Source: Capnocytophaga gingivalis ATCC 33624 (GTDB lineage: Bacteria; Bacteroidota; Bacteroidia; Flavobacteriales; Flavobacteriaceae). From it: 64,000 bases of DNA. The notes below the pieces were generated by a model. The model saw only the letters and a program-made list of their open reading frames with translations. It made no database searches and was not told the DNA's origin. This document shows, piece after piece, positions 123 to 58,503 of the stretch. The position numbers and the translations under genes are program-made. Location of the stretch: the NCBI RefSeq assembly GCF_000174755.1, contig NZ_ACLQ01000003.1, positions 62,001-126,000 on the forward strand, read 5' to 3'. The first letter of the stretch is position 1. Each line of letters starts with the position of its first letter.

Positions 123-166
123 ATAATAAGAAAGCTGCTTCGAAAAGAAAGCAGCTTTCTTATTAT
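123..166. terminator. Bidirectional terminator between sdhB and the dcu gene
   Basis: A perfect 18-bp stem (123-140 with 149-166) closes an 8-nt loop. It is A/T-rich at the base and has a GC core (AAAGCTGC). It sits between the converging ends of two genes and can act on both strands. Confidence 0.85.
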
Positions 167-39252: not shown

Positions 39253-39298
39253 AAAAACAGGTTTTTATAGTGAATTCTTGCTATAAAAACCTGTTTTT
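39253..39298 (+). terminator. Terminator of glmS
   Basis: A perfect 18-bp stem (39253-39270 with 39281-39298) with a 10-nt loop ends in a T-run. It starts 15 bases after the glmS stop. Confidence 0.9.
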
Positions 39299-39379: not shown

Positions 39380-39452
39380 CGCGGGGTAGAGCAGTAGGCA
39401 GCTCGTCGGGCTCATAACCCGAAGGTCACTGGTTCGAGTCCAGTCCCCGCTA
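39380..39452 (+). tRNA. Initiator tRNA-Met (CAT)
   Basis: The 73-base sequence folds into a full cloverleaf: a 7-bp acceptor stem, D-stem GAGC/GCTC, anticodon arm TCGGG-CTCATAA-CCCGA, variable loop AGGTC and T-arm ACTGG-TTCGAGT-CCAGT. The anticodon is CAT. The three G-C pairs next to the anticodon loop and the C1-U72 mismatch (position 1 unpaired) mark it as the initiator, not the elongator. CCA is not encoded. It has its own promoter and a terminator 6 bases after. Confidence 0.97.
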
Positions 39453-43010: not shown

Positions 43011-43026
43011 TTCTCAATGATCAATG

Positions 43027-43071
43027 AATAATGAGTAATGACTAATACAGTATTAGTCATTACTCATTATT
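43027..43071. terminator. Bidirectional terminator between sodA and the secreted toxin-like gene
   Basis: A perfect 21-bp stem (43027-43047 with 43051-43071) has a 3-nt loop and consists of AATGAG/AATGAC-type words. The stop codon of the leftward gene (43060-43062) lies inside the stem. Confidence 0.8.
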
Positions 43072-43740
43072 TATTTTGGTATTGATCATTATCCTCGTTT
43101 CCACATAGGCTCCTTGGGGGACTTGGCTAATGATTGCTTCGCGATACCCCTGCCACAGATAACCTCCTGGCAACCAGAACTTATTGACTCCTGCTTCATT
43201 GCCTGTAGGCATTCTCAGAAAAAAATTCTCAGGAGAAGGAATATCTATCCGAGAGAGTCTCCTTCCTGCCCAATGCCCATGAGGCACCCCTAAAGCTGCT
43301 TCTATATAAGAAACATCTCCCTTTGCTTCTTCCAAAAGACAATCCATTTGTTCCTTAGGGATTACAAATTGACAATTGTCAGGCCTGCCCACAAGCGCAC
43401 GCCCATACTTATCCAAAATATCTTCAGGTACGATATAGGAGGCCCCTTGTAGAAAAGTACTCAAATGCACTGCTATATCGTTAGGGCGCAAATAGGATGA
43501 GGGAGCTGGTCGCTCCCCCTTAGGTATTTTCATAAGAGAAGCACTGGTCTCCCCATGAAGATAATGCACCCATTGGCAAGTATGCCAAGAGGTAGAAGAT
43601 AGGAATATCTCCTTGCTCTTCTCTACTTTTCTAAGAATAGGCGAGGAAGATTGCTCTTGCCAAATGTCCTCCCTCTGTCCATACGTATTCCCTATTAGCA
43701 ACAAAGAAATAAGAGATATCTTTGTGAGAAAAGGTAACAT
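43060..43740 (-). CDS. Secreted protein with toxin-like C-terminal motif
   Basis: The 226-residue product has a signal peptide (about residues 1-21, ending NTYGQ) and no lipobox. The C-terminal 110 residues contain VIPKEQMDCLLEEAKGD, LGVPHGHWAGRRLSRIDIPSP and LRMPTGNEAGVNKFWLPGG, followed by a short helix and QVPQGAYVETRI. As I recall, similar GNExGAN-x-W-x-PGG text occurs at the C-terminus of Rhs and other polymorphic toxins, but I cannot name the family and the activity is unknown. It is leftward, 11 bases after sufD, next to an island of immunity-like genes. Confidence 0.55.
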   Translation of the reverse strand: MLPFLTKISLISLLLIGNTYGQREDIWQEQSSSPILRKVEKSKEIFLSSTSWHTCQWVHYLHGETSASLMKIPKGERPAPSSYLRPNDIAVHLSTFLQGASYIVPEDILDKYGRALVGRPDNCQFVIPKEQMDCLLEEAKGDVSYIEAALGVPHGHWAGRRLSRIDIPSPENFFLRMPTGNEAGVNKFWLPGGYLWQGYREAIISQVPQGAYVETRIMINTKINNE

Positions 43741-51511: not shown

Positions 51512-52099
51512 TTACAGACTTCTTCTTCCTTCTCTGATATAGAATATTTCGTGGTAAGCGGTAGAAAACCAGCCGTCTTCTATCATATAAATAAATTGAC
51601 TCCAAAGGCTTCCTTCCTCTAATAATTCAGGATGAAGTTCACGAATAGCCTCGGTTATTTGCTGGGCAACTTTATCCAGTACTGCAAAAAGTTTTTCTTG
51701 GGTAGAAGTATCACTACCTTTAAGCTGAAATACCCCCGCTAACAACCAACTATAACTTTTGATAAACTCATCCAGCGAATGATTCACCCACACCACAGAG
51801 GCGTCAGTATAATCGTCATTGGTAGAGAGTAAGTATACATTCCCCTTAGCATTCAGTGCAAAATAACCATAACAGCATTTTCCAAAACACTGGAAATGTT
51901 GCCCTTGCTGTTGCATAGGTATAAGCTCATCGGGAAAGCGAATGAAGTAAAACCCCATTTGTGGATAGTCATTTAGTAGGGCAAACTTGTTTTGCAGTAC
52001 CTCGTCAAGGCTCATTAAGTGGGGTTGAGGAGAGTGCAACTCAGCAGTAATGCCCGCTTGGTGTAGGGCTTCTATATCGTCTTTTGTAAAACTAAGCAT
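51512..52099 (-). CDS. SUKH-4-like immunity protein
   Basis: The 195-residue soluble protein has a pattern resembling SUKH-4: a first part with GFYFIRFPDELIP, then CCYGYFALNAKGNVYLLS, followed by ASVVWVNHSLDEFIKSYSWLL, in which the VVWVN-x-SLDEF stretch is characteristic of the end of the fold. The last 70 residues are helical. These proteins counter polymorphic toxins or, in some cases, partner with non-toxin proteins. It is the first gene of a two-gene leftward unit; 69 bases upstream a rightward ncRNA begins on the other strand. Confidence 0.65.
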   Translation of the reverse strand: MLSFTKDDIEALHQAGITAELHSPQPHLMSLDEVLQNKFALLNDYPQMGFYFIRFPDELIPMQQQGQHFQCFGKCCYGYFALNAKGNVYLLSTNDDYTDASVVWVNHSLDEFIKSYSWLLAGVFQLKGSDTSTQEKLFAVLDKVAQQITEAIRELHPELLEEGSLWSQFIYMIEDGWFSTAYHEIFYIREGRRSL

Positions 52100-52129
52100 A
52101 AACTATTTTTGAGATTTTAATTAGAAATC

Positions 52130-52161
52130 TTTGGAGAATTTCAAAAAGTGTTGTATCTTTG
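52130..52161 (+). promoter_or_regulatory. Consensus promoter of a candidate ncRNA
   Basis: TTTG (52130-52133) is followed after 20 bases by TATCTTTG (52154-52161). It is one of the best promoters in the window, and no protein gene follows on this strand for 4 kb. Confidence 0.8.
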
Positions 52162-52167
52162 CCCCCG

Positions 52168-52255
52168 AAGATGAGTTAAAATCATAGACTCGCTGGGCTA
52201 ATAACCCAGATGCGTTATCGGGCGTGTTGAGTAAGGATTTTAACTCATCTTTTTT
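52168..52255 (+). ncRNA. Structured small RNA candidate, about 90 nt
   Basis: The RNA should start near 52167 and end in the T-run at 52250-52255. A perfect 16-bp stem (52168-52183 with 52236-52251) closes the molecule and doubles as the terminator. Inside it, CTGGG-CTAATAA-CCCAG (52193-52209) forms a 5-bp hairpin, extended by CGC/GCG with a GAT bulge, and ACTC pairs with GAGT. ATAAC in the loop can pair with GTTAT downstream (52213-52217), giving a possible pseudoknot. I see no open reading frame of note. It is not tRNA, SRP RNA, tmRNA or 6S by sequence or length. It lies between a SUKH-4-like gene and the abiH pseudogene, both leftward. Confidence 0.7.
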
Positions 52256-52308
52256 CTTCTAATAACCTAAATTAATATACTTTCTGTTCTAGTTTCCATT
52301 TTTAAATT

Positions 52309-53206
52309 CTATCTAAGGACAAAATCACCATATCTCTTAATTTCACTCATTAATCTTTCAGCATTTACTTTGTCTTTATCAGAGAAGTAATGTAATGTCC
52401 AAGTAGCCTTATGGCTGATAGATTCAGATATTTTCTTGAAATAAGGGTAATCTATTTCATTATATGAGTGTCCAATTACAATTACCTCATCTATATCGGA
52501 AAGACTAGAAAAATAATTTAAATGTGTGTTTATAATTTTGTTAGTATCCTTACTCATCTTGTCATAGAATTCACAAACAGCATATTCTGCAAATTTCTCA
52601 TACCCAATATCCATAATAATATCATTCTCTGCTTCTTCTAAATCAGTGTTATCATATCCATACAAAGCTTTTTTAATATTAAATTTTTTAACATCCTTAC
52701 CATGTCCAAATATTAACTCTTCTCCTACTTTATTATGTATGTGCATGATACTCTCATCAGGAATTCTATAAACCAATTCTAATACTTTAGTATAATTGAA
52801 CGAGAAGAAATGAGCAGTTTTGTCTATGTCATACTTCTATTATGATATTTAAATCTAATGAATTTATCCACTCTTTAAAGCCTGAACGGATCTTTCCTAA
52901 TAGCTCATCACATTCTTGCTCTGTGAAAATTTGTGCATCATACCATTCCGCATCCCGAAAATCATCCGAACCAAGTCTTGGAACATTTTCAGATATAATC
53001 TCCCTAAAAGAATCATAACAGATCTTTTCTTCCAAGTTTCGTTCAAAGTCTGACCATAAATCAGAACCTTTATCAACATCATAATATTGCTCCATTTTTT
53101 CTAATACATCACATCTTTTTTTTTCAAGATATGTGTAGAAGTCAGAATATCTACATGGAATTCCATGAGCTATGTCAAATCCATTTCCTATAATATATAA
53201 TTTCAT
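52309..53206 (-). pseudogene. abiH: AbiH-family abortive-infection gene broken by a frameshift
   Basis: The first part (from ATG at 53206; KLYIIGNGFDIAHGIPCRYSDF at the N-terminus) is the AbiH signature, a phage-defence family. It stops at a TGA at 52829-52831 after SLDLNIIIEV. In the next frame the protein continues YDIDKTAHFFSFNYTKVLELVY and then VYRIPDESIMHIHNKVG to a stop at 52309. SFNYT followed by HIHN and ELIFGHG is the C-terminal AbiH pattern. Removing one base at 52834 restores a single frame of about 298 residues. It may be a decayed defence gene, or the base may be an error. Confidence 0.75.
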
Positions 53207-53327
53207 AAATTTATATAATGCGTTTTTTGTTTCATCAAAAGGCTCTCTATTTCTTCCTAACAAACTAAAGAAATATTATTTTACATTTAATCCGATAAGA
53301 AAAGAGGGCTTTGATTTTGAGTCATTA

Positions 53328-56163: not shown

Positions 56164-56643
56164 ATGGCATCTATTACACACCCTTATTTTGGTACTCTTG
56201 ATACCAGCATTATACAAGAAGATTTTGACCCAGATGTGCTATGGGAACAAAAAGTAACTTTCCAAGAATTAAGCGACCCTGTTGAGTTTAGTCTTTGGTT
56301 GGCTAAAAAAGAGGAAATCAGTAAGGAAAGATTGGATTTGTTTGAACAATTTATCAAGCATTTTCCAGAAAGAGACCAACAGGCACGCAAAGCGCTCAAA
56401 AGCTATTTAGAACAAGATAGCGAGTATATAGATTTTCATATAGACGAATTAGAGTTAGAGGTACCTACCTCTATTGATGATTTTGTGACAGCTATGAAAA
56501 TTAATAACGTGGGGCTTTGGTACTGTATTTCAAAGGAAGAAATTATTGTCGATTATATGATAGACCCTGACCAAAGTGACGAGATTCTTGCTGTTCGTTT
56601 TAACTTAGACGGCAGCTTTAGTTCTATTGCTTGGGAAAGCTAA
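56164..56643 (+). CDS. DUF2004 family immunity-like protein
   Basis: The 159-residue soluble protein opens with MASITHPYFGTLDTSII, the characteristic PYFGxLD start of DUF2004, and continues with VLWEQKVTF and a helical middle. DUF2004 proteins are found among polymorphic-toxin immunity genes. It is the only rightward intact gene in the island after 51 kb, with its own promoter and a terminator-like hairpin after it. Confidence 0.75.
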   Translation: MASITHPYFGTLDTSIIQEDFDPDVLWEQKVTFQELSDPVEFSLWLAKKEEISKERLDLFEQFIKHFPERDQQARKALKSYLEQDSEYIDFHIDELELEVPTSIDDFVTAMKINNVGLWYCISKEEIIVDYMIDPDQSDEILAVRFNLDGSFSSIAWES

Positions 56644-57945: not shown

Positions 57946-58503
57946 TTAATTACTAACGATTAGTTCTAAAAACTTCGGTGGCACTTCATTTGTAAGCCAT
58001 ACTCCATTGGCAGAGAGGTAAAAAACATACCCTGCCTGGTGCATTGCCATTGTATTTACTTTAAAGATGATGGGTTTGCCGTGTCGCGCACCTACTTTGG
58101 TTGCGGTTGTTATATCAATGCTGAGGTGTACGTGTTGGCGGGTTTGCTTTTGGAGTCCGCTTTTGAGAATGCTCTCTACGAACCTGCTGGCAGTGCCGTG
58201 ATACAAATATTCAGGAGGTGTTTGGGGCTGTAATTCTAACGCTACAGCAAGTGAATGCCCTTGATTGGCGCGTATTTTTGTGTTATCCTCGCTAAAAGCA
58301 TACCGCTGTTTGCTATCGGTAGTGACGATTTCTTCCAACATTTTAAGGCTGAACACTGGGAATTTACGCTTCATATTCTTAATGAGCATATTTACCTCAG
58401 CCCAACCGTGTGTGTCGAGGGTAATACCAATAGCCTCAGGGTGGTGTCGCAGTACCAAACTGAGAAACTTGCTCTCTTTTTTATGTTTTTCTTCTTTAGA
58501 CAT
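57946..58503 (-). CDS. kptA: RNA 2'-phosphotransferase (KptA/Tpt1)
   Basis: The 185-residue cytoplasmic enzyme has the full Tpt1 pattern: SKFLSLVLRHHPEAIGI near the N-terminus (Arg-His pair), a winged-helix-like part with HGWAEVNMLI, then YHGTASRFVESILKSGL near 100, RQHVHLSIDITTATKVGARHG and the C-terminal YVFYLSANGVWLT. It removes an internal 2'-phosphate from RNA, using NAD+. Bacteria have no tRNA splicing that needs it, so its bacterial role is open; it may repair RNA or detoxify ADP-ribosylated ends. It shares a transcript with a propeller-like gene. Confidence 0.93.
   Translation of the reverse strand: MSKEEKHKKESKFLSLVLRHHPEAIGITLDTHGWAEVNMLIKNMKRKFPVFSLKMLEEIVTTDSKQRYAFSEDNTKIRANQGHSLAVALELQPQTPPEYLYHGTASRFVESILKSGLQKQTRQHVHLSIDITTATKVGARHGKPIIFKVNTMAMHQAGYVFYLSANGVWLTNEVPPKFLELIVSN

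What the first reader, a model, noticed from the sequence alone, without database searches (positions are those of the whole stretch)
52130..52255. Promoter-plus-terminator small RNA with no matching known class
The sequence shows a full TTTG-20-TATCTTTG promoter, then about 90 nt closed by a perfect 16-bp stem that ends in a T-run. Inside are a 5-bp hairpin, a possible CGC/GCG extension and a loop (ATAAC) that can pair with GTTAT downstream to form a pseudoknot. There is no protein gene on this strand for about 4 kb. It does not read as tRNA, tmRNA, SRP RNA or 6S RNA. It lies inside the immunity-gene island beside a decayed abiH gene. A regulatory, defence-linked or toxin-antitoxin RNA is an inference.
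Basis: partly seen in the sequence, partly recalled or inferred. Interest (0 to 1): 0.65.

Follow-up and report, generated by a model that had tools for sequence, protein, structure and literature searches.

The report
RNA gene antisense to RNase toxin
A mouth-dwelling bacterium carries a small, tightly conserved folded RNA encoded opposite the tail of a now-broken RNA-cutting toxin gene; part of it looks like a leucine tRNA, so it may be an antidote that outlived its toxin.

Summary
In detail: a Bacteroidota promoter (TTTG-N20-TATCTTTG), then an ~88-nt structured RNA closed by a perfect 16-bp stem, with no Rfam match. The same block, promoter included, occurs in 4 of 20 searched genomes of the genus (Capnocytophaga) at four unrelated sites; my wider searches found no further copy. 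[quoted passage not shown] No intact toxin was found: all four copies are broken or truncated, in different ways, while the RNA is nearly unchanged (3 of 27 third-codon sites vary inside it, 9 of 11 beside it), the promoter boxes do not vary, and changes in the three main helices keep pairing on the + strand. A fourth helix loses one pair in one genome. The RNA resembles tRNA-Leu(UAA) in register (21-24 of 31 positions in the four genomes; 1 of 3000 shuffles does as well). I conclude it is a real RNA gene, most likely the RNA half of a mobile toxin/RNA module. How it acts (tRNA-like decoy, cis-antisense, or something unrelated) is inferred. There are no compensatory double changes and no transcript data.

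The parts
52130..52133 (+). -33 promoter element TTTG
   Evidence: identical in all four genomes
52154..52161 (+). -7 promoter element TATCTTTG (consensus TAnnTTTG; only the two nn positions vary among the four genomes)
   Evidence: consensus as in PMC6847099
52166..52255 (+). predicted small RNA; start inferred from the -7 rule, end inferred from the T-run
52167..52183 (+). P1, 5' arm of the closing stem (16 Watson-Crick pairs plus one G-U)
52236..52252 (+). P1, 3' arm of the closing stem
52188..52192 (+). P2, 5' arm (pairs with 52228-52232); invariant in four genomes
52228..52232 (+). P2, 3' arm
52193..52209 (+). P3, anticodon-arm-like hairpin CTGGG-CTAATAA-CCCAG
52179..52209 (+). 31-nt stretch that matches tRNA-Leu(UAA) in register (D-arm end plus anticodon arm), score 23
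52210..52227 (+). P4 helix 52210-52216/52221-52227 in the minimum-energy fold (one pair lost in G018); alternative pseudoknot of 52215-52218 with 52201-52204
52250..52255 (+). T-run, presumed terminator tail (interrupted in the homologues)
52121..52252 (-). C-terminal remnant of a PBECR3-type toxin gene, ~43 codons with stop codon at 52121-52123, no start codon left

Best explanation
This is a real, promoter-driven, highly structured small RNA gene. Promoter and body lie antisense to the last ~45 codons of a stand-alone RNase toxin gene of the PBECR3 kind on the other strand. I take the two as a mobile toxin/RNA module in which the RNA is the antidote and works through its folded shape: it binds the toxin as a decoy substrate, presenting a tRNA-Leu-like anticodon arm held by a long closing stem. 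In this genome and in the three others that have the RNA, the toxin gene is dead or truncated and the RNA survives. Shown by sequence: conservation, promoter match, strand, overlap, toxin family (in one genome), toxin decay, tRNA resemblance. Inferred: transcription, antidote role, protein binding, decoy mechanism.
For: Four homologues at unrelated sites, conserved from the -33 box through the stem. Third codon positions vary 3 of 27 in the RNA part against 9 of 11 in the tail outside the promoter boxes (Fisher p 6e-5); boxes 0 of 10 variable against 17 of 34 (p 0.004). Every change in P1 and P3 keeps a standard pair on the + strand, and the minus strand folds 4.1-8.6 kcal/mol worse. The minus-strand frame continues into a PBECR3 domain in G018 (38 bits, cut-off 30). 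The toxin copy is damaged or lacks the domain in 4 of 4 genomes while RNA and its promoter persist in 4 of 4, the order of loss expected of toxin and antidote. The sequence is frozen also in the loops, and 68 of 86 nt are paired in the minimum-energy fold, which suits recognition of a shape better than simple pairing. tRNA-Leu(UAA) is the best in-register tRNA in all four genomes (21-24 of 31; 1 of 3000 shuffles; 0 of 479 other hairpins). The BECR fold includes RNases that cut tRNA (PMC5512222, section 19).
Against: No transcript was seen. No compensatory double change in four sequences, and the column-shuffle control is uninformative (500 of 500 shuffles). P4 loses a pair in G018. The T-run is interrupted in the three homologues and the generic terminator scan found nothing. 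The RNA persists although no toxin is left to neutralise, so it may have another job. The tRNA resemblance was noticed after the fact, is weaker over the whole RNA (9 of 1000 shuffles; 20 of 2132 stretches of the window), and PMC5512222 itself thinks phage PBECR domains may not cut tRNA. No intact toxin with the RNA was found.
Confidence: 0.42

Rival explanations
1. An independent trans-acting RNA of a mobile island, with no functional tie to the toxin whose gene it overlaps.
For: RNA and promoter persist in 4 of 4 genomes after the toxin has decayed; in the window's genome the RNA part has 0 changes of its own in 82 nt against 3 in the 44-nt tail.
Against: The overlap with the toxin's C-terminus is present in all four copies, and three of the four still carry further toxin sequence, so the two moved together. 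Little single-stranded sequence is available for seed pairing.
Confidence: 0.28
2. A type I (cis-antisense) antidote: the RNA pairs with the 3' part of the toxin mRNA and blocks or destabilises it; the 7-nt loop with a U-turn-like CUAA would start the pairing (motif recalled, not from a call).
For: Convergent genes overlapping at the toxin's 3' end, as in B. subtilis SR6/yonT (PMC5848175, start of the abstract seen in the listing). In G018 the toxin has its own promoter with the same spacer.
Against: A cis-antisense pair needs no sequence conservation, yet loops and third codon positions are frozen. The toxin reads as a nuclease, not a small hydrophobic peptide.
Confidence: 0.18
3. No RNA: a conserved piece of coding sequence that happens to be palindromic, with a chance promoter match.
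For: The tail under the promoter evolves like coding sequence (variable sites by codon position 7, 1, 9; second positions 1 of 11 against 16 of 23, p 0.002). Promoter-like motifs occur by chance about once per window.
Against: Third codon positions are frozen in the RNA part only (p 6e-5), the boxes do not vary, pairing is kept on the + strand and weakened on the minus strand, and the block persists where the reading frame is cut off.
Confidence: 0.08

Closest known systems
Type III toxin-antitoxin systems (ToxIN, CptIN)
   Same: A structured RNA, possibly pseudoknotted, paired with an endoribonuclease-fold toxin.
   Different: Convergent and antisense instead of one operon with the RNA first; single unit instead of repeats; PBECR3 instead of ToxN. 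Features of type III taken from passages of PMC5086642.
Type I systems with 3'-overlapping antisense RNA (e.g. yonT/SR6)
   Same: Small RNA of about 100 nt, overlapping the toxin's 3' end from the other strand (PMC5848175, abstract start).
   Different: Toxin is a nuclease-fold protein; the RNA sequence is conserved beyond what cis pairing needs; the RNA outlives the toxin.
PBECR3 (PF18812) nucleases of phages and mobile elements
   Same: The opposite-strand gene in G018 belongs here.
   Different: The Capnocytophaga gene has a C-terminal extension beyond the domain that coincides with the RNA; a stand-alone PBECR3 of another Bacteroidota genome lacks it.
tRNA-Leu(UAA)
   Same: 5-bp arm, 7-nt loop of the form CUNNNAA, and the UAGAC stretch before it.
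   Different: No cloverleaf; anticodon positions 34 and 36 differ; not called as a tRNA by Rfam or ARAGORN.

Membership tests
Any Rfam 15 family | Score at or above a family's gathering threshold | tested here: not met
   Only the tRNA at 39380 in the whole window; at E up to 10, three weak hits at 52000-52400, all far below threshold
Type III toxin-antitoxin | Bicistronic operon: antitoxin RNA, terminator, then toxin, from one promoter | tested here: not met
   RNA and toxin frame lie on opposite strands and overlap; rule from PMC5086642
Type III toxin-antitoxin | Tandem repeats in the antitoxin | tested here: not met
   A single unit in the sequence and one full-length copy in the genome
Type III toxin-antitoxin | Pseudoknotted antitoxin RNA | tested here: inconclusive
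   Possible, but its four tested pairs never vary
Type III toxin-antitoxin | Toxin of the ToxN kind neutralised by binding the RNA | not testable with these tools
   Toxin family is PBECR3; binding needs experiment
Type I toxin-antitoxin | RNA encoded antisense to the toxin gene | tested here: met
   Overlap with the C-terminal frame in all four genomes
Type I toxin-antitoxin | Usually a small hydrophobic toxin | tested here: not met
   PBECR3 nuclease domain in G018; 'usually' after the abstract start of PMC6563280
Type I toxin-antitoxin | RNA acts by pairing with the toxin mRNA | not testable with these tools
   Needs experiment
PBECR3 (PF18812), for the opposite-strand gene | Score over Pfam's cut-off | tested here: met
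   G018 frame 38 bits against 30. The G010 frame has no Pfam match; the window's remnant is too short to carry the domain
tRNA | Cloverleaf detectable by covariance model or ARAGORN | tested here: not met

The most novel reading that the evidence does not exclude
The RNA is an antidote by molecular mimicry: a closed, single-unit RNA that displays a tRNA-Leu-like anticodon arm with an altered anticodon and so traps an anticodon-type RNase of the PBECR3 kind. It is encoded on the opposite strand inside the toxin's own reading frame, so that one stretch of DNA was selected both as a toxin C-terminus and as the toxin's antidote. Left behind after toxin loss, it may act as an orphan immunity RNA.
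Probability: 0.18. Interest if true: 0.85.

Novelty: new variant of a known kind. Interest (0 to 1): 0.58.

Why it matters
As far as I recall, RNA antidotes known so far mostly either pair with the toxin mRNA (type I) or bind the toxin from the same operon (type III). A toxin whose own gene carries, antisense and under double constraint, a folded RNA resembling a tRNA arm would sit between the two and would suggest a target (leucine tRNAs) for a little-studied nuclease family. It would also mean that orphan immunity islands of oral bacteria hold RNAs as well as proteins.

Tried and rejected
Known RNA families: none. Phage and plasmid records: no DNA match and no match for the G018 toxin frame. 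Viral contigs: none. Wider search: a near-exact pattern over genome contigs gave 3 stretches, all Capnocytophaga. The RNA model found the window's genome and one tRNA-Leu gene in 299 family genomes, and the window's genome alone in 395 phylum genomes; both used stricter filters that lose weak matches. In the genus it also gave reverse-strand hits of the same palindrome in the four genomes and 11 weak matches of 22.8 bits or less. Six of those 11 came with loci and are not tRNA genes; I saw alignments of two, one a plain long hairpin, one a partial match, and count none of the 11 as homologues. The G018 toxin frame as query found only the window's genome in 395 phylum genomes and, in the genus, the four RNA-bearing genomes plus two weak matches at E 0.04-0.05. 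PF18812: 1 of 397 family genomes, below the cut-off; 3 of 395 phylum genomes, over it.

Rejected: terminator of a neighbouring gene (inner structure and promoter conserved, neighbours differ). Link to abiH (one of four sites). Integron attC-like site (judged from the sequence and the single copy, not tested further). Homology of the 60 nt beside the RNA in the window with the toxin core: not supported (247 of 1000 shuffles as good). Structure model of the G018 frame: mean pLDDT 50, not used. Solved structures: best E 0.46. NCBIfam: nothing. PADLOC: AbiH for the two abiH pieces, and hits of 14.6 and 17.1 bits for the toxin frames that I take as chance.

Results of mine that were wrong and were replaced: (brackets in the wrong register; right one); the four per-genome lines (out of register; right ones; the count of 479 hairpins used the right register; misread reverse-strand tRNAs; right one).

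Full report
WHAT IS THERE. The stretch folds better than all 200 shuffles (z -3.75). By the published -7 rule for Flavobacterium (PMC6847099, two passages seen) the start is 52166, one base before the stem. The helices are P1 52167-52183/52236-52252, P2 52188-52192/52228-52232, P3 52193-52197/52205-52209 with the loop CTAATAA, and P4 52210-52216/52221-52227. No Rfam family fits.

HOMOLOGUES. A DNA search of 20 genomes of the genus finds it in 4, the window's own included (96, 90 and 91% identity in G010, G018 and G012). The pattern scan of species genomes gives three named contigs whose lengths equal those of the G010, G018 and G012 contigs: Capnocytophaga periodontitidis, C. sputigena and Capnocytophaga sp. 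oral taxon 863. The RNA model finds the same 4 of 20 strongly. In 299 family genomes it gives, besides the window's genome, one hit that is a tRNA gene, and in 395 phylum genomes the window's genome alone. Conservation runs from the -33 box to the end of the stem; the flanks are unrelated. In G012 the block sits between genes that I read as lipA and cysN (names recalled), with 303 bp where the window's genome has 81 bp and no block. So the block differs in place between genomes; how it moves is unknown.

THE OTHER STRAND. Read on the minus strand, RNA and promoter are an open frame in all four genomes, ending in a stop codon just beyond the -33 box. In G018 this frame continues from a PBECR3 domain (PF18812, 38 bits, cut-off 30), but the domain's N-terminal part is missing from the frame, the sequence before it is read in another frame with stops, and the start of the gene lies about 2.7 kb away, beyond DNA with a transposase fragment that is itself below Pfam's cut-off. 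In G010 the frame is open (104 aa) but has no PBECR3 match; I read it as a shortened version. G012 has a separate N-terminal piece, then a stop. In the window only the last ~43 codons are left. The G018 gene has a promoter of its own with the same 20-nt spacer. The start reads MKTLKDK in G010, MKSLKDK in G018 and MKDK in G012 (my reading), with nothing like a delivery domain before it. A stand-alone PBECR3 from another Bacteroidota genome ends where the domain ends, so the part opposite the RNA looks like an added C-terminal extension. I found no intact toxin in the 20 genomes.

TWO CONSTRAINTS ON ONE STRETCH. Variable sites by codon position are 3, 0, 3 of 28, 27, 27 in the RNA part and 7, 1, 9 of 14, 15, 15 in the tail. 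Outside the boxes, second positions of the tail are conserved (1 of 11 against 16 of 23 at first and third positions, Fisher p 0.002), so the tail looks like a coding sequence under selection. Yet third positions vary 9 of 11 in the tail outside the boxes and 3 of 27 in the RNA part (p 6e-5), and box positions 0 of 10 against 17 of 34 (p 0.004). These tests treat sites as independent and rest on four sequences. Changes found in one genome only: RNA part 0, 0, 2, 2 and tail 3, 3, 0, 2 in the window's genome, G010, G018 and G012, so the contrast is not seen in every lineage. In P1 and P3 every change keeps a standard pair on the + strand (31 of 31 pairs in all four sequences, P2 and the four pseudoknot pairs counted in, which do not vary), while the minus strand folds 4.1 to 8.6 kcal/mol worse. 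P4 loses one pair in G018, where the single-sequence fold also rearranges. No pair changes on both sides, and the column-shuffle control separates nothing (500 of 500). The structure therefore rests on strand asymmetry and conservation, not on covariation.

tRNA RESEMBLANCE. Noticed after the fact: P3 is a 5-bp stem with a 7-nt loop of the anticodon form. Of 387 other perfect hairpins of that size, 11 have such a loop and 1 reaches 13 of 17 identity with one of 25 tRNA arms of this genome; shuffled versions of the arm reach 13 in 3.2% of cases. A result I did not look for: the best model hit outside the genus was a tRNA-Leu gene, aligned from the D-arm end through the anticodon arm into the variable arm. 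In register (14 flank positions plus the arm, one gap allowed at a cost of one) tRNA-Leu(UAA) scores 23 of 31 in the window's genome and 22, 21 and 24 in G010, G018 and G012, the best tRNA each time (next best 18-19). 1 of 3000 stem-preserving shuffles and 0 of 479 other hairpins reach 23. Over the whole RNA the result is less striking: 9 of 1000 shuffles and 20 of 2132 stretches of the window reach the score, the tRNA-Met gene and the RNA itself not removed. The model searched over 24 loci with tRNA genes of this genome gave only two matches, a hairpin beside a tRNA and the arm of tRNA-Met at 9.8 bits, so tRNA-Leu(UAA) is not found by the model itself. The loop differs from that tRNA at positions 34 and 36.

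MECHANISM. Step 1, a + strand RNA is made: strongly suggested, not shown. Step 2, it belongs to the toxin gene: supported by overlap in 4 of 4 and by the toxin being the damaged partner in 4 of 4. Step 3, it neutralises the toxin: inferred. Step 4, it does so through its shape, as a tRNA-like decoy: inferred from frozen loops, extensive pairing (68 of 86 nt), the tRNA-cutting members of the BECR fold (PMC5512222, section 19) and the tRNA-Leu resemblance. The same paper considers that phage PBECR domains may not cut tRNA. The chief rivals are an unrelated RNA of the island and a type I antisense antidote.

KNOWN OR NOT. It fails two defining features of type III systems (operon order, repeats; PMC5086642, passages) and has the layout but not the usual toxin of type I. 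Literature searches for Capnocytophaga with small RNA and toxin-antitoxin, PBECR and colicin E5 with antitoxin, tRNA mimic with antitoxin, RNA antitoxin with mimic and nuclease toxin (no paper), Bacteroidetes small RNA with toxin-antitoxin, and anticodon nuclease with decoy listed nothing that, from titles and abstract starts, describes this; only the best-ranked papers were listed. A paper on candidate structured RNAs in human microbiomes does not name Capnocytophaga in its main text (PMC8040213, term search); its tables were not open to me.

Noticed in passing
window 52309-53263 (-): abiH is split into two frames (profile 1-128 and 156-260 of PF14253), a probable recent pseudogene.
   Followed up: partly
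window 57946-58503 (-); L013 10576-11127 (-): A KptA/Tpt1 RNA 2'-phosphotransferase gene sits inside the immunity-gene island; a very similar ORF lies near the RNA in G010. An RNA-end enzyme beside RNase-related genes may be no accident.
   Followed up: no
L014 9886-12550: In G018 the toxin gene is split by about 2.7 kb carrying a transposase fragment and a protein of repeated GFIDKTGKEV-like units.
   Followed up: partly
window 123-166, 39253-39298, 43023-43075: Other long inverted repeats (18 nt perfect, 18 nt perfect, 26 nt at 96%) with short loops.
   Followed up: no
window 56164-56643 (+): A lone + strand 159-aa ORF among minus-strand immunity genes, without a Pfam match.
   Followed up: no
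L109 1504-1929 (-): A stand-alone 141-aa PBECR3 protein (81.7 bits) in another Bacteroidota genome, between what read as transporter permease genes.
   Followed up: partly
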